The notes under the pieces are model-generated. The model searched no databases. It saw only the letters and a list, made by a program, of their open reading frames with translations, and was not told where the DNA came from. This document shows, one piece after another, positions 591-52,834 of a DNA stretch of 64,000 nt (positions are counted from its first letter, which is position 1; each line of letters opens with the position of its first letter). Source of the stretch: Candidatus Magnetomicrobium cryptolimnococcus (GTDB lineage: Bacteria > Nitrospirota > Thermodesulfovibrionia > Thermodesulfovibrionales > Magnetobacteriaceae); the NCBI GenBank assembly GCA_018606805.1, contig JAGYWI010000004.1, positions 1 through 64,000 of the forward strand, given 5' to 3'. Position numbers and translations under genes: made by a program.

Positions 591-1226
591 TCATAAACTT
601 CTTAATCTGTCTATTTCTTCTTTAATATCGGTTATCACTTCAGTATTATATATTTTCTTTTTATTTCCCTCTTTAACAGAAGTAATATAAAAAACCTTGC
701 CACCAAAATTTTTTGAAAAATCTGTGTGAGTCTTTTCTTGCAAAGAACGCTCTATAAATATATTAGGTATATGTGATACTTCAGTTATAGGTTTTATTTG
801 AAGCCCTATATATTTATTATTTATTTCTACATAAAAATCAACATTATATAAACGATCCCATTCATCAGGGGCAGGTTCAATTTTTACATTTAATTCTTTT
901 TCTAATTGGCCATAAATAGTAGTTATTTCAGTTGTATAACCATCATATGTTCTATTAATTACCATATCAAACATATAATCTATACAATCTATCTCTGTTA
1001 TTTTTTCAACTTCAGAGACTATCACCTCTGTAATCTTTATATATAACTTTCTCCCTAATTCTTCTATATCCTCTTTTGATTTAACATTTTTAAAATAGTA
1101 TTCAGCCCATTCTTCTTTATTTTTCGGAGTACACCTCCTAATCGCCTCAGATACAGCACCCACATTTCGTTTGAAATTAAGTTGAAATCTATTCATAACA
1201 CTATTTAATATCCATTCTTTAGCCAT
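591..1226 (-). CDS. MjaI-family type II restriction endonuclease
   Basis: The 211-residue protein looks like the MjaI family of type II restriction endonucleases (family prototype cuts CTAG). The N-terminal segment with NRFQLNFKRNVGAVSEAIR and the following KNKEEWAEYYF are the most recognisable parts. The ATG start follows an AAGGAT-like site and overlaps the end of the upstream methyltransferase gene by 8 bases, so the two are probably translationally coupled. The product would cut unmethylated DNA in the cytoplasm. I cannot place catalytic residues with certainty. Family assignment is by recognition, and CTAG specificity is inferred. Confidence 0.8.
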   Translation of the reverse strand: MAKEWILNSVMNRFQLNFKRNVGAVSEAIRRCTPKNKEEWAEYYFKNVKSKEDIEELGRKLYIKITEVIVSEVEKITEIDCIDYMFDMVINRTYDGYTTEITTIYGQLEKELNVKIEPAPDEWDRLYNVDFYVEINNKYIGLQIKPITEVSHIPNIFIERSLQEKTHTDFSKNFGGKVFYITSVKEGNKKKIYNTEVITDIKEEIDRLRSL

Positions 1227-2514
1227 AAGTACTATCCTTTTTAAGGTTTATATAAGTCAAAAATCTAGCTTTGTGCTTGTAATTTATAGACACCTCCACA
1301 TCAACAAGAGCGTTTTTTATAAGATGAGCATTAATGAATGTCCTATTTTTCAAATACAAATAACATAATAAATTATTTTTCTCATCATATTTATTTTCAT
1401 CAAATTTCACAAAAACTTTTTTCCCACGCACTGTATCAGTAAGATATTTAATAGCCGCTTCTTTTTTATCTTGCTTTTCACGTATACCTATTAAGCGAAT
1501 ATTGACATTATCATTTAAAACTAATAGTTCTGGAGATATTATATCTATTACGGTGTAAAGTACTTCTCTTTTTGAATTACTATCAATTTTTGAACCATAG
1601 GTTAAGATTTTTGGGTCAATATTTTTATCTATCCTTACAGTATCCCTAAAAATATAGGGCAGCTTGCTTATTCTATCCTGAAAATTAATATTAAACTTAT
1701 CCTGCATTATAATATTATAATTTCTTTCTAATAACGGATTTTCAGCTAATTTTGACTCAATTATAGGTATAAAATCCTTATTTATCTCATAACCAAGAGA
1801 GTGTCTGTTAAGGTTTTTAGCTACTAAACTAGTAGTACCACTTCCAAGAAATGGATCAAGTACGGTATCACCAACAAAACTAAACATCTTTATTAACCTT
1901 CTTGGTAGTTCTTCAGGAAACATAGCAAGATGTTTACCTTGCCGCTGGCCGGGGAAATTCCAGTGTCCATAAAAATATAGATTCCATTCCTCTTTAGTAA
2001 GCTTTGATAACTCTTTTATATCCTTGGATACCGCTGGAGGATTACCCGGCTTTTTAAATATTAGTATGAACTCATAATCTATTTTAAGCATACCATTTCT
2101 TGGGTAGGGATAAGAGCCCATGATGCTAGCCCCACCGCTTGTATTACATGTGGTAACCTTTTGCCAAATAATCGCACCTATATAGTCTAAGCCTATTGCT
2201 TCACAAAATTTTATTATCTCCGTCCTAATAGGTATAACCTTATATCTCCCATAATACGTAGAACGAGCAAACTGATCACCAACATTAATACATAATCTAC
2301 AGCCATCATATAAAACCCTAAAACACTCAGCCCACACCAAATTCAAATTATTAATATACTCTTCATATGAATCGTTGTAGCCAATCTGATTTTTATCCCC
2401 ATAATCTTTCAACTGCCAGTAGGGAGGCGAGGTTATAATTAAATGGACAGTTTCATCGGGCACTTCAAGCATATATCTTGAATCCCCTATTATTACCCTA
2501 TGTGAAGTGTTCAC
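1219..2514 (-). CDS. Site-specific DNA methyltransferase (N4-cytosine type) with SNase-like C-terminal domain
   Basis: The N-terminal two thirds form an amino-methyltransferase: TSPPYW is catalytic motif IV of the N4-cytosine/N6-adenine class, and DPFLGSGTTSLVAKN is the S-adenosylmethionine motif I, placed after it (beta-class order). The last ~90 residues resemble a staphylococcal-nuclease fold (NIRLIGI, then KKVFVKF, then LLCYLYLKNRTFINAHLI). Two of three catalytic residues expected for SNase appear changed (Glu43 to Gln, Arg87 to Asn), so the tail may only bind nucleic acid. I chose the GTG at 2514, just past the lpxI stop; a TTG at 2541 would overlap lpxI. It pairs with the endonuclease gene downstream and protects host sites. 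Confidence 0.85.
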   Translation of the reverse strand: MNTSHRVIIGDSRYMLEVPDETVHLIITSPPYWQLKDYGDKNQIGYNDSYEEYINNLNLVWAECFRVLYDGCRLCINVGDQFARSTYYGRYKVIPIRTEIIKFCEAIGLDYIGAIIWQKVTTCNTSGGASIMGSYPYPRNGMLKIDYEFILIFKKPGNPPAVSKDIKELSKLTKEEWNLYFYGHWNFPGQRQGKHLAMFPEELPRRLIKMFSFVGDTVLDPFLGSGTTSLVAKNLNRHSLGYEINKDFIPIIESKLAENPLLERNYNIIMQDKFNINFQDRISKLPYIFRDTVRIDKNIDPKILTYGSKIDSNSKREVLYTVIDIISPELLVLNDNVNIRLIGIREKQDKKEAAIKYLTDTVRGKKVFVKFDENKYDEKNNLLCYLYLKNRTFINAHLIKNALVDVEVSINYKHKARFLTYINLKKDSTYG

Positions 2515-2522
2515 GTTAAAAC

Positions 2523-3341
2523 CTATATAGAAACCCCACAAATAGTTATCTTTGCGGCATTTGCTTCTTGTATAATTCTATCTTTTTGCACAAGCAAGGT
2601 ATTTTCTGCCTCTACGGCTAAAACGCGTGCCCCTACTTCTTTCATAACATAGATTGTATCTAAACCAACAACAGGAAAATCAAATCTCTTATCCTGTTGT
2701 GGTTTACTCACCTTAACAACAATAGCCCCACCTCCGGCAAGCTGACCACCACGTCTTATCGCCTGGTCTGTCCCCTCTATCGCCTCAATAGCCATAACCG
2801 CCTTTCTCTTAACAACCACCGTCTGCCCTATATCAAGCCTACCCATTTCCTTCGCTATCCTATAACCATACTCTATGTCCATCTTTTCATGCTCGGCAAG
2901 CCCTTTTTTCGTAATTGTGCCGGCAGGGGCTAATATTTTACTAGTAAAATCAGTCACTTCACGCACTCGCATCCCTTCTTCTTGAATCAAGCTGATAAAG
3001 GCATTCATTATTGTATCATCATTTCTATTAATCAAGCGAAGGAGCACTGACACCGCCTTAAAATCCGGCCGCACGCTACCAACCGTATAAAGCAATGTCT
3101 TAGGCACCTTACCACCAAGTACTACATCAGTAACACCAGCCTTTTTTAATGCCTTCAATATATGACCAACCTTACCAACGTTTATCTCTTGAAAATCATC
3201 TGCTAACTCTTTTAATAACCCATCCACCGCTATTGGCAAAAGCCCTATGACAAACACCTCATACCCTTGCGCCTTAGCCTCCTGAATAATTATCCGTGGA
3301 AGGCCTCCCATGCCAGCTAAAAGTCCAAGCTTTCCGCTCAT
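2523..3341 (-). CDS. lpxI: UDP-2,3-diacylglucosamine pyrophosphatase LpxI
   Basis: LpxI (formerly DUF1009) hydrolyses UDP-2,3-diacylglucosamine to 2,3-diacylglucosamine 1-phosphate in lipid A synthesis and replaces LpxH in many bacteria. The 272-residue length is typical. The N-terminal GLLAGMGGLP, the GTDQAIRRGGQLAGGGAIVVK block and KPQQDKRFDFPVVGLDTI are family landmarks. The start overlaps the lpxA stop by 4 bases, indicating coupling within the bamA-to-lpxI operon. The lpxB gene that often follows is absent; a restriction-modification pair follows instead. Confidence 0.93.
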   Translation of the reverse strand: MSGKLGLLAGMGGLPRIIIQEAKAQGYEVFVIGLLPIAVDGLLKELADDFQEINVGKVGHILKALKKAGVTDVVLGGKVPKTLLYTVGSVRPDFKAVSVLLRLINRNDDTIMNAFISLIQEEGMRVREVTDFTSKILAPAGTITKKGLAEHEKMDIEYGYRIAKEMGRLDIGQTVVVKRKAVMAIEAIEGTDQAIRRGGQLAGGGAIVVKVSKPQQDKRFDFPVVGLDTIYVMKEVGARVLAVEAENTLLVQKDRIIQEANAAKITICGVSI

Positions 3342-11005: not shown

Positions 11006-11698
11006 CTACAAATCTATCACATTTTTTATCTCGGCACAAAAATCCACAAAACACCGCAAACTATTTAAATGATTAGATTCAGTACTTAACCTCTTTTTCA
11101 GTTCCTCTAAATAGGCCTCACTTTGTACTTCTTTAGAATTATTTTTAGAATAGCTTATGTTTCTTGCTTGAAACATAGCCTTAAGGTATTTCAAATGGTA
11201 ATATGCTATAGAGTATTCATATCCTTTAGGCTTTTTCATCAATTCAGGATCATACAATGATACATTATAAAACCGAGCATACTTTAAAAACTCATGATGG
11301 TTTTGTATATTTCTGCTATATACTTTACGATTTCCCAAAAACCATGTCTCAAGACAACAATTTTGCACAAATATTTCTAATTTAGCTTTTTCAAGACTAA
11401 CGCCATTTACATTTAATACTTCAAATATCTCCTTTTGTCGTTCCTCCAAGGATATTTCTTCAGCATCCAAACAAATAACTAAATAATCATATTTACCATT
11501 TTCATTAATGTCATCAATAGCACGGAGCATATCATCATAAATAGAAGGAATACCATCAGAACTAAAAATATAATAATTATTATTTACAGCACTATAAAAA
11601 TCATCCACTTTTGTTAACTTAGGCACTAAATGACTAAGCCAAGCTGGATAAACAGCAGGTTCTGTACTTTTTCCTTCAACAAGAAAATAAATATTCAC
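11006..11698 (-). CDS. TOPRIM/RloB-like putative nuclease of an ATPase-linked pair
   Basis: The 230-residue protein starts with IYFLVEGKSTEP, like the EGxxTEP motif of RloB-type and TOPRIM-related proteins, with Glu8 as the candidate first acidic residue. YLVICLDAEE (Asp78) matches the second acidic motif, with DAEE in place of the classical DxD. The C-terminal half is helical and unassigned. It begins with GTG sharing one base with the ATPase stop (TAGTG), so translation is coupled. With the ATPase it resembles split OLD, RloA-RloB and PARIS-like defence pairs. The nuclease role is inferred. Confidence 0.6.
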   Translation of the reverse strand: MNIYFLVEGKSTEPAVYPAWLSHLVPKLTKVDDFYSAVNNNYYIFSSDGIPSIYDDMLRAIDDINENGKYDYLVICLDAEEISLEERQKEIFEVLNVNGVSLEKAKLEIFVQNCCLETWFLGNRKVYSRNIQNHHEFLKYARFYNVSLYDPELMKKPKGYEYSIAYYHLKYLKAMFQARNISYSKNNSKEVQSEAYLEELKKRLSTESNHLNSLRCFVDFCAEIKNVIDL

Positions 11699-12804
11699 TA
11701 GCTCTTTATACCTCCCTTGTAATCTGCTAACTGTATAAGTTGCTTAAAAGCCTCATGATGAGATTTACCTAAATTGTATTCACTTGCATCTTTTGTATAA
11801 ATATCTCCACCCTTTCTATAAACGATTTTCCAATATTTCATTTCAATAGCATTAATAATATAAGGATGATGACTTGTCATAATAAACTGCATATCTCTTT
11901 CATCAAAAGTTATAAGCAAATTCAATACAGAATCAATACAGTTAATCCCTAAACTATTTTCAACTTCATCAATCAATATGACAGTATCATAAGTAATCAA
12001 ATATAGCTGGCTGATCATAACTAATGTTTTAAACATTCCAGATGATATATCATCCTGTAAAATCCAGTCAGAAACTCCTTTCTCCTTTATCATAAAAGAT
12101 ATAACATATTGAGAACTATTAGACTGCTCACTTATTTCTAATTTAATATCTTGCACTTGGTCAAATATTTCAACAAAATTTCTTTTTATTTTATTAAAAA
12201 TACTATGTTGTTCTTTATATAAAATATAAAGCTTATATAAAAGCGGTAAATTATATTTCAAAACACTTTCTGATGTTACATACATTTCTAAATATTTAGG
12301 AGGAACAATTGATACAGTAAAACGACCTGTTTTTAAGTTAAAATTCTTTGGTATTCCGTAAAATCCCTCAAATGCTGATTTAATACTTTCCTCTTCATTT
12401 AAAAGACTAATAATACTCATGTGCGATGGTAGTTTTGGTGTTTCTTTCCCTTTATAAATTATTTTATTACTTATACGATTAATAAGACGTTCGTCATTTA
12501 AATATAAGTTCTCATAAGCTATTCTTTCTGGGAAATCAGGTGGTATATTAGTTCCAACATATTCAAAAGACCCCTCCCATAAATAAAACATACCTTTACC
12601 ATTACTGATTGAAAATTTAACCATCCACTCCACACCACTAATAGACTTTCCATTGGCTATATCTTTTAAGTCCATTAAAGCCTTTAATATAAGCGTCTTG
12701 CCAACCCCTGACGCTCCAACAAGCAAGTTTAAATCCGAAAATTTTATCGGTTTTATACAAAGCCCTGTTGCTTTGTTCGTGTAACTAAATTCATGTATCT
12801 TCAT
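11698..12804 (-). CDS. RecF/OLD-like ABC-type ATPase of a putative defence pair
   Basis: The 368-residue protein has a Walker A GASGVGKT at 30-37, a degenerate signature SSGMFKT at 254-260, a Walker B VILIDE at 275-280 and an H-loop SHHP at 311-314. This is the layout of AAA_15/AAA_21 ATPases that act as sensors or motors in OLD, RloA and AriA proteins. Between Walker A and the signature is about 200 residues of unassigned sequence. It is coupled to the TOPRIM-like gene by a TAGTG junction, and the pair is separated from lptE by a strong hairpin. Base composition is visibly more A+T-rich than leuS or bamA, suggesting acquisition. Confidence 0.75.
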   Translation of the reverse strand: MKIHEFSYTNKATGLCIKPIKFSDLNLLVGASGVGKTLILKALMDLKDIANGKSISGVEWMVKFSISNGKGMFYLWEGSFEYVGTNIPPDFPERIAYENLYLNDERLINRISNKIIYKGKETPKLPSHMSIISLLNEEESIKSAFEGFYGIPKNFNLKTGRFTVSIVPPKYLEMYVTSESVLKYNLPLLYKLYILYKEQHSIFNKIKRNFVEIFDQVQDIKLEISEQSNSSQYVISFMIKEKGVSDWILQDDISSGMFKTLVMISQLYLITYDTVILIDEVENSLGINCIDSVLNLLITFDERDMQFIMTSHHPYIINAIEMKYWKIVYRKGGDIYTKDASEYNLGKSHHEAFKQLIQLADYKGGIKS

Positions 12805-12851
12805 AGTTTAACACCTCAACCAACTAAAATAAGAATATTATTGATAATAGT

Positions 12852-12955
12852 CTGCGAGTCAAAAGTTTTTGAAGGGGGAGTTTGAGGGGGGAAAACTTTT
12901 TTCAAAAAGTTTCCCCCTCAAAAATCCTTTAAGTTTTCCCCTCAAAAATCCTTTT
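12852..12955. repeat. Intergenic hairpin and direct repeats between lptE and the ATPase
   Basis: GAGGGGGGAAAACTTTTTT and its near complement AAAAAGTTTCCCCCTC form a hairpin at 12884-12919, and a CCCCTCAAAAATCCTTT segment is then repeated directly. The left part (GTCAAAAGTTTTTGAAG) is a diverged relative of unit B at 16132. It could end leuS-lptE transcription, but the usual U-run is not obvious. Confidence 0.6.
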
Positions 12956-12971
12956 TCTTAAATCAACAACA

Positions 12972-13457
12972 TCAATATGCTAAGTTTGAAATAAGCCGTT
13001 TAGAAAGCACCCTAAGGGCTTCTTCCTCTCTAATCTCTTTTGCTGCTGTCAAGGGGTTAATCTTTTCCGAATACTCTGGCGATTTATATGACTCTATAAA
13101 AGGCGACATCATACCCTTTATCTCTTTTATCTTTTCATCTCCACGTCTTAATACAAAATCCCCAGTTATCACTATCTCATACTCTACAGCGTAATCAAGC
13201 TTTTCTGAAAGTATCCTTGTAGTAAAATCTGTAATCGTGCCATCAATAACGTTTTCGGATTGGTCAGTTACCGTAACACCTCGCTTCATAAACTCCTCAG
13301 TAAGCACAAAGTAGAGTTTATCCTCAAGTTTTGGCTCTGTTGTTGCATTTACAATCTTTCCAATACGCACACTGTCAAAATTAAGAGTTTCCGTCCCAAC
13401 AATCTTATAACCACAGCCAAATAATAAAATAAATATTAGTAATAAAGATTTTTTCAT
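12972..13457 (-). CDS. lptE: LPS-assembly lipoprotein LptE-like
   Basis: A small outer-membrane lipoprotein that plugs the LptD barrel for LPS export. The 161-residue precursor has a lipoprotein signal, MKKSLLLIFILLFGCGYKI, with lipobox Cys15. The start of the mature protein (CGYKIVG) is typical of LptE in this kind of genome, and the rest (VRIGKIVNATTEPKLED, then LLTEEF-like helices) fits the LptE fold. It directly follows leuS, as lptE does in E. coli and many others. Sequence conservation in this family is low, so context carries part of the call. Confidence 0.82.
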   Translation of the reverse strand: MKKSLLLIFILLFGCGYKIVGTETLNFDSVRIGKIVNATTEPKLEDKLYFVLTEEFMKRGVTVTDQSENVIDGTITDFTTRILSEKLDYAVEYEIVITGDFVLRRGDEKIKEIKGMMSPFIESYKSPEYSEKINPLTAAKEIREEEALRVLSKRLISNLAY

Positions 13458-13464
13458 TTTCTAC

Positions 13465-15990
13465 TCACTTTACAACTATATTTACAAGCTTACCACGGGC
13501 AACCAGCACCTGCACTACCTTCTTATCCCCTACGTGCTCCTTAACCTTATCAAGCGCAAGCGCTATTGTCTTTAGCTCGTCATCAGAAAGCCCCACTGTA
13601 ACCATCGTCTTAGCACGCACCTTACCGTTTATCTGTACAACTAGCTCAAACTCCTCTTCCTTTGCAGCCGCTTCATCCCACTTAGGCCACTGCTGCAAAA
13701 ATATACTTTGTGTATTTTTAGTAAAGCCGCCCCTTAGCCAAAGTTCCTCAGCCATATGCGGGGCAAACGGGCTTATCAAAAGCACCAAGTTTTTAAGTGC
13801 AAAGGCATACACTGCCCAATCCTTATCATTTGACGGAGTACTAAATGCGGTAACCTCGTTTAAAAGCTCCATAAGGGCGGCTATTGCCGTATTAAAGTGA
13901 TAGTCCCTTTCGATTGAATCTGTAACCTTTTTAATTGTTTGATGGGTTTTTCTAAAAAGAGCTCCACCATTTGTAATATTGTCAGTATTTATAATAGATA
14001 GTTTATCAGCATTATTTGTAACCTGCCCCCACAGCCTATTTAAAAACCTGTTAGCCCCTTCAACCCCCTTATCAGCCCATTCGATGTCCTTTTCAGGAGG
14101 CGCTGCAAATAGGGAAAATACCCTTGCCGTATCTGCCCCGTATTTTTGAATAATATCATCCGGCGTTACCAGGTTTTTCTTCGATTTAGACATCTTTTCA
14201 ACCCTGCCCCTTTCAACAGGCTTACCACAATGCACACAAAGGCAACTACTCCTCACCTCATCTGGAAATAACCACCCGTGCTCAGGACACTTTAATGTTT
14301 CCATACAAACCATACCTTGCGTTAAAAGCCGCAAAAAAGGCTCCTCAAAGTTAAGTAACCCTATATCTTTAATGACCCGTGTAAAAAACCGCGAGTACAG
14401 TAAATGTAAAACAGCATGCTCCACACCACCAATATATTGATCTACTGGCATAAAGTACTCTATGTTTGCCCGATGAAGGGCATCTTCCTCTTTTTTTGAA
14501 CAGTAACGGATGAAATACCATGAAGAATCAACAAATGTATCCATCGTATCAGTGTCTCGGCGTGCTGGTCCCTTACATATTGGACAGGTGGTATTTATAA
14601 ACCTCTCATCATTAAGAGGAGAGCCACCCTTTCCAGTAAGCTCAATGTTTTCAGGCAACAACACCGGAAGCTCTTCAACAGGTGCTGTAGTAATGCCACA
14701 GTCTTTACAGTAGATAGCAGGAATAGGCGTGCCCCAGTAACGCTGCCTTGAAATTCCCCAATCCCGCAACTTATAATTTATCTTCCCATTACCAACGCCT
14801 TTTTCTTCAAGATACTTTACAATTGATTCTATAGCCGTTCTATTTTGAAGGCCACTAAATTGCCCACAATCCACCAACACCCCATCACCTTCATAAGCTT
14901 CACTAAGTATAGACAAGGCACTTGCCTCTGGCAATACAACCTGCCTTATTGGAAGAGCATATTTTTTAGCAAACTCAAAATCTCGCTGGTCGTGTGCAGG
15001 CACTGACATGATAGCCCCTGTACCATATTCCATAAGCACAAAATTTGCCACATACACTGGAATCCGTTCACCATTTACGGGATTTATACAATACCTGCCT
15101 GTAAACATCCCTTCCTTTTCTTCCTCTTTACCATATTTAGCAACCAATCCTTGAAGCCTTTCAGTATCAACGCTAAGGAGTTTACTGTATGGGTGTAGCG
15201 GTGAAAGACATACAAAGGTTGCACCAAAAAGTGTGTCCGGACGGGTTGTAAATATACGTATCTTTTCCCCAGCCCCATCTATTATTTGAAAATCTACCTC
15301 AGCCCCATAGCTTTTACCAATCCAGTGTTTTTGCATAGTCCGCACATGCTCAGGCCAACCAGTCAAGGTATCACACCCTTTAAGCAGGTCTTCAGCATAT
15401 TGCGTAATTTTAAAAAACCACTGTTCAAGCTCCTTTTGCACTACAGTTTCATCACAACGCCAGCACCGTCCGTCAATTACCTGCTCGTTAGCCAGCACCG
15501 TAACGCAGGAGTTACACCAGTTAACTAAGGACTTCTTTTTATAGGCAAGCCCCCGCTCAAACATTTTAATGAAAAACCACTGATTCCACTTGTAATACTC
15601 CGGCTCACACGTGGCAAGCTCACGTTGCCAGTCATAGCTGACACCCATTTTCTTAATCTGGGCTTTCATATATTGGATATTTTCAAGAGTCCATTTCTTA
15701 GGGTCTATACCATGGGCAATTGCAGCGTTTTCAGCAGGCAATCCAAAGGCATCCCAGCCCATCGGGTGTAGCACGTTATAGCCTCTCATCTTTTTATATC
15801 TAGCGATGACGTCTCCAATAACATAGTTTCTAATGTGCCCCATATGAATCCTGCCCGATGGATAGGGAAACATCTCAAGACAATAAAATTTTTGTTTATT
15901 AGGCTCAACTACAGTATTATCAATACCCTGTTTTTCCCAAAACTGCTGCCACTTTGCCTCAATAGCAAGGGGGATGTATTTTTGTTCCAA
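13465..15990 (-). CDS. leuS: Leucyl-tRNA synthetase
   Basis: Charges tRNA-Leu. The 841-residue class Ia enzyme shows the HIGH-type motif in [15 protein letters not shown], the KMSKS motif in [10 protein letters not shown], an editing (CP1) domain with [16 protein letters not shown] and a zinc-like Cys-rich insert (CKDC...CPIC). The C-terminal [10 protein letters not shown] anticodon-binding region is present, so the gene looks complete. It is the first gene of a two-gene unit with lptE 7 bases downstream. Confidence 0.97.
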
Positions 15991-51389: not shown

Positions 51390-52217
51390 ATGGGCTATTG
51401 TTTCTTTATAGGTGGATATGATGCCGAAATGGTGGAAATACTAAACATTTTAGTATCTAAAGGCGTTTGCTTTTACGATAAACAATTGTCATGGGGAGCT
51501 GCACTTACAGAATATGAAGAAGAGCTTACCATGTTAGCACCAAATATTATACCAGTATTTATAGAGTTAAATTTAGATTGCCGTTACCCTGAAAACTCAA
51601 TCATCGTAGACCATCATGGGCAAAAAGCAAGTAAATATGCTCAGACTTCAATAGAGCAGGTAGCAACCTTATTAAGAGTAAAGCTAAATAGGCATCAGCA
51701 ATTAATAAGTGCAAACGACAAAGGCCATATAAGGGCAATGATAGCATTAAATGCAACAAATGAGGAAATTGCACAAATAAGGCAAATGGATAGAAAAGCA
51801 CAGGGAGTAACAGAAGAAGATGAAAAAAATGCCGAAATATCTATTAAAAATCATATAGAAATAATTAATGGCAATTGTGCTATAGTACAAAGCCTAACGA
51901 GACACTCTTCCTGTATATTTGACAGAATATACGATAAATTCGATTATGTTTTTATTTATACCCCAAAGGGTCAATTACATTACAGTGGAAAGGGACATAT
52001 TGTACAATATCTTGTAGAATTATATAAAAAACAAAAAACAGATAATAAATCCATTGATTTTTGGTGGGGCGGTAGCCTTCCAGATTATGGTTTTTTTGGA
52101 ACTGATGCTCCTTTAGATAAACAACAAATAAAGCTAATGTTTTATGAAATTCAACAATTGGAAGCTATTAATAGTAAAGAGGAGAGTAAATGTCTGGAGA
52201 AAATGGCAATAGGATAA
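51390..52217 (+). CDS. DHH-type phosphoesterase-like protein of unknown role
   Basis: The 275-residue protein begins YCFFIGGYDAEMVEI and has a DHH-like motif IIVDHHGQ, followed by ISANDKGHIRAM, in the order seen in DHH phosphoesterases (nucleotide or RNA degradation). A GKGHIVQYLVELY segment near the end recalls the GGH part of DHHA domains. I do not know the substrate. No good ribosome-binding site precedes its ATG. It overlaps the next gene by 28 bases, implying joint expression. Confidence 0.6.
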   Translation: MGYCFFIGGYDAEMVEILNILVSKGVCFYDKQLSWGAALTEYEEELTMLAPNIIPVFIELNLDCRYPENSIIVDHHGQKASKYAQTSIEQVATLLRVKLNRHQQLISANDKGHIRAMIALNATNEEIAQIRQMDRKAQGVTEEDEKNAEISIKNHIEIINGNCAIVQSLTRHSSCIFDRIYDKFDYVFIYTPKGQLHYSGKGHIVQYLVELYKKQKTDNKSIDFWWGGSLPDYGFFGTDAPLDKQQIKLMFYEIQQLEAINSKEESKCLEKMAIG

Positions 52218-52834
52218 AATCACAACATATCTTTTTATTTCCTTTTAATATTGAATATATTGACGATGATGCTAACAAAGCAAAAAAACATAAGGCATTT
52301 ATAAATGACATAATAACTGATATTAAAGCTTCAGACTGGCAATATAAAGCGTATAACCCTACCGAGACTGAAAATAATTATAATGAGTTTTTTTATTTCC
52401 ATAAATATGTTCAGAACGTTATCTTTGAAACTAAACAACTCAAGGACATGGAAATATCTCAAGAGAGTGCAATATCATACTATTTTGAAAAAACTAATGA
52501 ACTGAAACAATATGGAGAAATGGTTATTAATATTAAAACTAAAAATATAAACGATGACACATACAAATTACAAGTAAGCAATATATCGTTGAGGTTGTTT
52601 GAAACAGGTATTGGTATTTTAAGTCTGGTGCTTTTAAATTATGAAAAAGAAAATATTGATGATATAATGAGAATAAATGAATTTGGTAGGCGTATATATC
52701 CACAATTTTTAGATGAAAAAGAGGGTATAGACAAAACAAAGTGCATCTTCTTAGCCAATAATATTGCGCTTACATGGAATGGGCGTAAAATGAAAGAGCA
52801 TTTTTATGTAAAGCATTATAACAAAATGTTGTAA
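52190..52834 (+). CDS. Unknown protein coupled to the DHH-type gene
   Basis: I do not recognise a named family. The 214-residue protein starts HIFLFPFNIEYIDDD, has NNYNEFFYFHKYVQNVIFE and a distinctive segment SLRLFETGIGILSLVLLNYEK followed by INEFGRRIYPQFL. The last is reminiscent of long uncharacterised bacterial proteins that carry further sequence, so this may be a shortened version. A good site (AGAGGAGAG) precedes its ATG, which lies inside the DHH-type gene. A hairpin repeat begins just after the stop. Confidence 0.6.
   Translation: MSGENGNRIKSQHIFLFPFNIEYIDDDANKAKKHKAFINDIITDIKASDWQYKAYNPTETENNYNEFFYFHKYVQNVIFETKQLKDMEISQESAISYYFEKTNELKQYGEMVINIKTKNINDDTYKLQVSNISLRLFETGIGILSLVLLNYEKENIDDIMRINEFGRRIYPQFLDEKEGIDKTKCIFLANNIALTWNGRKMKEHFYVKHYNKML

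What the first reader, a model, noticed from the sequence alone, without database searches (positions are those of the whole stretch)
11006..12804. ATPase-TOPRIM pair as a candidate undescribed defence system
A 368-residue RecF/OLD-like ATPase is coupled by a TAGTG junction to a 230-residue protein with an EGKSTEP motif and an acidic DAEE in place of a DxD. The general idea is known (split OLD, RloA-RloB, PARIS), but the second protein is short and its acidic motif differs. The pair is A+T-rich and sits between two housekeeping genes.
Basis: partly seen in the sequence, partly recalled or inferred. Interest (0 to 1): 0.6.

Follow-up and report, generated by a model that had tools for sequence, protein, structure and literature searches.

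The report
Mobile ATPase–nuclease phage-defence gene pair
Two A+T-rich genes make an ATPase and a small nuclease-like protein that travel together between very different microbes, plasmids and phages, and in E. coli prophages they sit in a known anti-phage gene slot, so they are very probably a virus-defence cassette of a known general kind (AbiL/RloAB-like) that has no curated family of its own.

Summary
In detail: an intact 368-aa OLD/ABC-type ATPase overlaps by one base (TAGTG) a 230-aa protein; both are ~29% G+C against an ORF mean of 38%.

The small protein founds a family (about 85 loci, at least 11 phyla) with no Pfam, NCBIfam or PADLOC model of its own. Profile comparison links it to RloB (hhalign 97.5%), more weakly to DUF4276, and the AlphaFold model (pLDDT 97) has a TOPRIM-like strand order. 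DAEE is not an anomaly: D78 is invariant, and position 80 is D in 52 and E in 28 of 80 relatives.

The ATPase lies directly upstream in 83 of 83 loci with enough sequence; its best PADLOC model is AbiLi (40/40 relatives). The pair has no recurring third gene and is rare and patchy (3 of 296 Nitrospirota genomes), broken in two of three other carriers of its own family, and found on plasmids and an inovirus-like episome. In two P2-like prophage lineages it fills the gpA–gpQ slot, a published anti-phage hotspot. Chromosomal copies are not enriched in defence islands.

Best reading: an AbiL/RloAB-like, probably abortive, defence cassette in which the ATPase senses infection and restrains a two-metal TOPRIM nuclease. 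New variant of a known kind; activity and target are unproven.

The parts
11698..12804 (-). OLD/ABC-type ATPase, 368 aa (AbiLi/AriA/PtuA-like); proposed sensor and restrainer
   Evidence: AAA_21 1.2e-14; PADLOC AbiLi 3.5e-20, AbiLi in 40/40 relatives; profile vs PDB: AriA 2e-8, PtuA 1e-6; AF2 pLDDT 88.9, PtuA/Rad50 folds
11006..11698 (-). RloB-related TOPRIM-type protein, 230 aa, GTG start; proposed nuclease effector
   Evidence: hhalign to RloB 97.5%; Pfam RloB weakly in 30/50 relatives; AF2 pLDDT 96.8 with TOPRIM-like strand order; BFVD top match an RloB-like protein, probability 0.99 but E 3e-3
11696..11700 (-). TAGTG junction: ATPase stop overlaps the GTG start of the second gene by one base
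   Evidence: sequence; 1- or 4-base overlaps are usual in relatives
11711..11716 (-). GGGAGG, ribosome-binding-site-like, 10 bases before the TAGTG overlap
   Evidence: sequence
12694..12717 (-). ATPase Walker A GASGVGKT (residues 30-37; G30, G35, K36 invariant)
12085..12624 (-). ATPase residues 61-240: fast-evolving middle lobe, candidate recognition surface
   Evidence: in close relatives amino-acid change is concentrated here while both ATPase core ends and the TOPRIM stay conserved
11675..11677 (-). E8 of EGKSTEP (TOPRIM glutamate), invariant in rows covering it
11459..11467 (-). D78-A-E80, TOPRIM acidic motif D-x-[DE]
   Evidence: D78 80/80; position 80 D 52, E 28
11330..11365 (-). QNCCLETWFLGN (residues 112-123); aligns with the RloB 'SNpcFExW' motif; E117 proposed second-metal ligand
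   Evidence: Q/C/E invariance partly biased by the search pattern
11144..11152 (-). Y183-S-K185; K185 proposed equivalent of catalytic K562 of Bp OLD (inference)
   Evidence: Y183 80/80, K185 79/80; PMC6755086

Best explanation
The pair is a mobile, two-gene anti-phage cassette of the AbiL/RloAB kind. The ATPase, an OLD/ABC-family protein resembling AriA and PtuA, probably forms an oligomer that binds the TOPRIM protein, keeps it inactive and senses an infection cue through its fast-evolving middle lobe (residues 61-240). On sensing, the TOPRIM protein is released or switched on and cleaves nucleic acid by two-metal catalysis (E8, E13, D78, D/E80, E117, K185), most likely RNA such as tRNA, stopping phage replication at the cost of the cell's growth. 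Shown here: strict gene coupling, conserved catalytic-type residues, mobility and loss, placement in a phage-borne anti-phage hotspot, uneven evolution of the ATPase. Inferred: sensing, restraint, nuclease activity, RNA as target, abortive outcome.
For: ATPase directly upstream in 83 of 83 loci with enough upstream sequence, although loci were gathered by the small protein alone. Best defence models: AbiLi 40/40 and AbiLii 41/50 relatives. RloB profile link 97.5%, shuffled controls at most 4%. Two P2-like prophage lineages (gpA only 37% identical) carry the pair between gpA and gpQ, the slot published as an anti-phage hotspot (PMC9122126); other phages hold RT+AlkB or Dcm+ParaMORC3 there. On 7 plasmids, one of them an inovirus-like episome. 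Patchy: 4/19 genomes of its family, two broken; 3/296 Nitrospirota; cross-phylum sister rows. Purifying selection in most close pairs with the ATPase middle lobe evolving fast (Fisher p 4e-8 and 9e-6). Precedents: RloB-type TOPRIM toxin and its AAA partner in neutralisation assays (PMC10440598), toxic F. nucleatum AbiLii (PMC3985639), AriB as TOPRIM tRNase restrained by AriA (PMC12409363).
Against: No member is known to have been tested. Chromosomal copies are not enriched in defence islands. Foldseek finds no significant PDB match to the small protein. L. lactis AbiLii was not toxic in E. coli and F. nucleatum AbiLi did not counteract its partner (PMC3985639), so toxin restraint by the ATPase is not general. 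A few loci have a broken ATPase beside an intact TOPRIM (L008, L037, L038). RNA rather than DNA as target rests on analogy with AriB. dN/dS of the middle lobe is not significantly above 1.
Confidence: 0.66

Rival explanations
1. Same cassette, but the nuclease acts on invading DNA (OLD/Gabija-like or anti-plasmid) rather than on RNA, and protects without killing the cell.
For: The residue set matches the two-metal site of OLD DNA nucleases (E400, E404, D455, D457, E508, K562; PMC6755086); plasmid-borne copies would suit plasmid or phage exclusion.
Against: Two-gene split architecture, AriA-like ATPase and published RloB/AbiLii-type toxicity (PMC10440598, PMC3985639) point to an abortive effector; the OLD-type residue set is largely shared by RNase M5 and AriB.
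Confidence: 0.2
2. A toxin-antitoxin or addiction module whose main role is maintenance of mobile elements, with no anti-phage role.
For: On small plasmids; overlapping two-gene layout; TOPRIM-broken/ATPase-intact loci (6) outnumber the reverse (3).
Against: The asymmetry is not significant (about p 0.08 allowing for gene length, own arithmetic) and ATPase-broken copies survive; many copies are chromosomal; the P2 gpA-gpQ slot is rich in defence cargo (PMC9122126); a 368-aa ATPase with a fast-evolving lobe is elaborate for an antitoxin.
Confidence: 0.12
3. A housekeeping or DNA-repair pair linked to its chromosomal neighbours (ogt, lptE, leuS) in this lineage.
For: The pair abuts ogt by 1 nt and could be co-transcribed with it; Cran1 shows that an OLD-type ATPase can have a cell-cycle role (PMC12796447).
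Against: No recurring neighbour in 30 loci (at most 2 of 120 neighbours per Pfam family); absent downstream of leuS-lptE in all relatives read; absent from 15/19 genomes of the family.
Confidence: 0.02

Closest known systems
AbiL (AbiLi/AbiLii), Lactococcus abortive infection
   Same: Two genes, ATPase then RloB-type TOPRIM; AbiLi is the commonest PADLOC model over the 40 ATPases and AbiLii over the TOPRIM proteins
   Different: AbiLii match is weak and partial (best 4e-7; about 64 of 170 profile positions for the window protein); conserved C-terminal region of about 80 aa not aligned to RloB; phage phenotype unknown
RloA-RloB
   Same: ATPase plus RloB-clan protein; EG..TE, D-x-D and N-x-C-x-E motifs align
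   Different: Pfam RloB does not match the window protein and matches relatives only weakly; no recurrent type I R-M neighbours. The same genome holds a genuine RloB elsewhere (C32:7066-7587)
PARIS (AriA-AriB)
   Same: Split OLD-ABC ATPase plus TOPRIM nuclease; AriA is the best solved relative of the ATPase by sequence (2e-8); AriAB was found through the P4/P2 hotspots (PMC9122126)
   Different: Second protein is not DUF4435 (hhalign 33%)
DUF4276 / HEC-01 pairs
   Same: ATPase + TOPRIM-like partner; DUF4276 weakly matches 29/50 members and aligns into the C-terminal PE...Y.K region
   Different: Below family level; DUF4276 lacks the QNxCxETW motif as such
OLD / Gabija GajA
   Same: OLD-type ATPase plus TOPRIM chemistry; catalytic residues can be matched one to one (inference from PMC6755086)
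   Different: Separate chains, no GajB helicase, shorter

Membership tests
AbiL | ATPase belongs to the AbiLi family | tested here: met
   AbiLi best PADLOC model, 3.5e-20; matches 40/40 relatives
AbiL | Second protein belongs to the AbiLii family | tested here: inconclusive
   3.3e-5 over profile positions 30-93 of 170; 41/50 relatives at E<=0.01, best 4e-7
AbiL | Two adjacent genes, ATPase first | tested here: met
   83/83 loci with enough upstream sequence
AbiL | Abortive infection against phage | not testable with these tools
   needs phage challenge
RloAB | Second protein matches Pfam RloB | tested here: not met
   no RloB match for the window protein at E<=0.01; relatives only weakly (best 2.8e-6). 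Clan-level relation supported: hhalign 97.5%
RloAB | Carried with type I R-M genes | tested here: not met
   no recurrent R-M neighbour in 30 loci; single occurrences beyond the listed families not excluded
PARIS | AriB-type DUF4435 partner | tested here: not met
   no DUF4435 match; hhalign 33%
PARIS | AriA-like ATPase | tested here: met
   AriA best PDB sequence match 2e-8; PADLOC AriA 38/40
TOPRIM fold | Glutamate after strand 1 and D-x-D after strand 3 | tested here: met
   E8 and D78 invariant, position 80 D/E; predicted strands 3-7 and 72-78 end at them
TOPRIM fold | Structural match to a solved TOPRIM | tested here: not met
   no PDB match at E<=0.001; best BFVD match an RloB-like protein, probability 0.99, E 3e-3
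OLD class 1/2 | ATPase and TOPRIM in one chain | tested here: not met
   separate ORFs in all loci read
Anti-phage defence system (functional) | Placement with defence genes | tested here: inconclusive
   P2-like hotspot in two lineages but no enrichment around chromosomal copies

The most novel reading that the evidence does not exclude
A distinct, widespread class of split OLD-ABC/TOPRIM immunity, separate from AbiL, RloAB and PARIS, whose ATPase carries a hypervariable infection-sensing lobe and whose nuclease has its own target, rather than a diverged AbiL.
Probability: 0.3. Interest if true: 0.65.

Novelty: new variant of a known kind. Interest (0 to 1): 0.45.

Why it matters
It defines a family with no curated model (at least 11 phyla including an archaeal bin, plasmids, P2-like and inovirus-like elements) that defence-annotation tools may overlook or lump with AbiL, and it supplies a near-ideal test copy in E. 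coli, a hotspot-borne pair whose phage activity, trigger and nuclease target can be measured directly. The fast-evolving ATPase lobe gives a specific prediction of where infection is sensed, an open question for most ATPase-TOPRIM systems.

Tried and rejected
DAEE as a departure from DxD: rejected. Unusually short second protein: rejected. Defence-island clustering of chromosomal copies: not found, with a within-locus far-gene control (tables list only the commonest 25 families). Conserved third gene or ogt link: none. Simple empty site: leuS-lptE is kept in relatives but its next gene there (holA-like) lies about 51 kb beyond leuS here, so the locus is rearranged and a clean insertion cannot be shown. 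First single-sequence genome scan found nothing. PDB fold search of the small protein gave only weak Rossmann-like matches. Toxin-antitoxin asymmetry of broken copies: 6 vs 3, not significant. dN/dS above 1 in the ATPase lobe: not significant. Idea that Microcystis copies lie between two identical transposases: wrong, the flanks are lepA and an ABC transporter.

Full report
Observation. The two ORFs exist as described: an ATPase of 368 aa (11698-12804, minus strand) and a 230-aa protein starting at GTG in the overlapping TAGTG, preceded by GGGAGG. Both are A+T-rich (GC 0.291 and 0.297; ORF mean 0.382, sd 0.041). Downstream, 1 nt away, is an ogt-type methyltransferase; upstream, after a 167-nt spacer, is lptE, then leuS.

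Family search. The ATPase is AAA_21 (1.2e-14). The small protein has no family of its own in Pfam or NCBIfam. PADLOC's best models are AbiLi (3.5e-20) and AbiLii (3.3e-5, partial). Tblastn found it on seven plasmids of Cyanobacteria, Bacteroidota and Proteobacteria, each with an ATPase ORF (broken in Proteus) directly upstream, and on an unannotated human faecal phage record. A profile scan gave 77 genome loci and 4 viral contigs.

Coupling. Loci were collected by the small protein only. In every locus with enough upstream sequence (83 of 83; six others are cut by contig ends; some are near-identical copies) the ATPase ORF, intact or broken, is directly upstream, usually overlapping by 1 or 4 bases. 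The one later exception is the decayed copy in family relative G001, where the ATPase is gone.

Active site. In 80 relatives E8 is invariant in rows that cover it, D78 is invariant, position 80 is D (52) or E (28), and Y171 and Y183 are invariant, with K185 and R203 in 79. Q112, C115 and E117 are also invariant, but the genome scan used that motif, so this is biased. The AlphaFold model (pLDDT 96.8, pTM 0.91) has strands 3-7, 41-46, 72-78 and 106-112 alternating with helices, with E8 and D78 at strand ends, as in a TOPRIM domain.

Relationship. hhalign of the 50-member profile: RloB 97.5% (E 5.9e-12), DUF4276 80%, DUF4435 33%, the pair's own ATPase 0.2%, column-shuffled controls at most 4%. 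Member scans agree: RloB 30/50 and DUF4276 29/50 at E<=0.01; AbiLii 41/50, HEC-01B up to 23/50. The best viral structure match is an RloB-like protein (probability 0.99, E 3e-3); PDB gave nothing significant. For the ATPase, AriA (2e-8) and PtuA (1e-6) are the best solved relatives by sequence, PtuA and Rad50 by fold, and AbiLi matches 40/40. The same genome also has a genuine RloB elsewhere.

Distribution. In the window's family (the carrier G005 has the contig length of the Magnetobacteriaceae record behind locus L011) 4 of 19 genomes have the pair: intact in the window and G005, TOPRIM frameshifted with intact ATPase in G013, only a C-terminal TOPRIM fragment in G001, each beside different genes. 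In a phylum sample, 3 of 296 genomes match. A tree of concatenated proteins mixes phyla in places, for example Dolichospermum with a Bacteroidales bin (SH-aLRT 100).

Context. In 30 chromosomal loci the four nearest genes share no recurring family (at most 2 of 120), and PADLOC hits are no commoner near than 7-10 kb away (tables truncated to 25 families). In contrast, four viral contigs and one complete E. coli genome carry the pair in P2-like prophages between the gpA replication gene and the gpQ portal gene; one contig is a diverged lineage (gpA 37%, gpQ 80%, pair 92%/80% identical). That interval is the hotspot of anti-phage systems described in PMC9122126; other phages hold RT+AlkB or Dcm+ParaMORC3 there. 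Plasmid pMsip02 is inovirus-like (Zot, DUF2523, major capsid protein) and carries the pair next to an integrase. In the window itself a type II restriction-modification pair lies about 8.5 kb away.

Evolution. Most close pairs show far fewer nonsynonymous than synonymous changes. Among Dolichospermum and Tychonema/Microcoleus homologues, amino-acid change concentrates in ATPase residues 61-240 while the ATPase ends and the TOPRIM stay conserved and synonymous divergence is fairly even (Fisher p 4e-8 and 9e-6); Microcystis pairs are mixed; dN/dS is not significantly above 1. This fits a recognition surface but does not prove positive selection.

Mechanism. By analogy with PARIS, where an AriA hexamer sequesters AriB and releases it as a tRNA-cutting TOPRIM dimer (PMC12409363), and with RloB/AbiLii-type toxins (PMC10440598; PMC3985639), the ATPase most likely senses infection and restrains the nuclease. 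My estimates: defence role about 0.8; restraint and release about 0.6; RNA target about 0.5; abortive outcome about 0.6. The literature already treats OLD-ABC/TOPRIM pairs as a broad class (PMC12839542, PMC10568477), so this is a new variant, not a new kind. No paper naming this subfamily was found in the held library, which lacks most subscription journals.

Noticed in passing
window 12845-12930: Imperfect ~85-bp palindrome in the lptE-pair spacer; related copies at more than 15 places in the genome (best 87-92% identical), REP/MITE-like.
   Followed up: partly
window 591-2541 (-): A+T-rich type II restriction-modification pair: MjaI-type endonuclease (PF09568, 2e-44) and N6_N4 methyltransferase (4e-45), about 8.5 kb from the ATPase-TOPRIM pair.
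   Followed up: partly
window 51390-52834 (+): Two overlapping A+T-rich ORFs (275 and 214 aa; GC 0.33 and 0.28) with no Pfam match; not examined further.
   Followed up: no
G000:C62:67307-68155 and window 12972-15990: leuS-lptE and the following holA-like gene, adjacent in most relatives read, are over 50 kb apart here; the break lies just downstream of lptE where the pair sits.
   Followed up: partly
L006 (LC777725.1): The pair rides on an Acinetobacter pittii plasmid that also carries blaOXA-72 and a yoeB-yefM toxin-antitoxin pair.
   Followed up: no
L182 (pMsip02, Methylovorus): Inovirus-like episome with Zot, DUF2523 and major capsid genes carries the pair beside an integrase.
   Followed up: partly
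L131 and L130 (family relatives G013, G001): Decaying copies of the pair: one with a frameshifted TOPRIM beside an intact ATPase, one reduced to a C-terminal TOPRIM fragment.
   Followed up: yes
genomes G001-G018: DUF4276 proteins are common in this family (up to 5 per genome) but nearly absent from the rest of the order sampled, suggesting a local expansion of ATPase-DUF4276-type systems.
   Followed up: no
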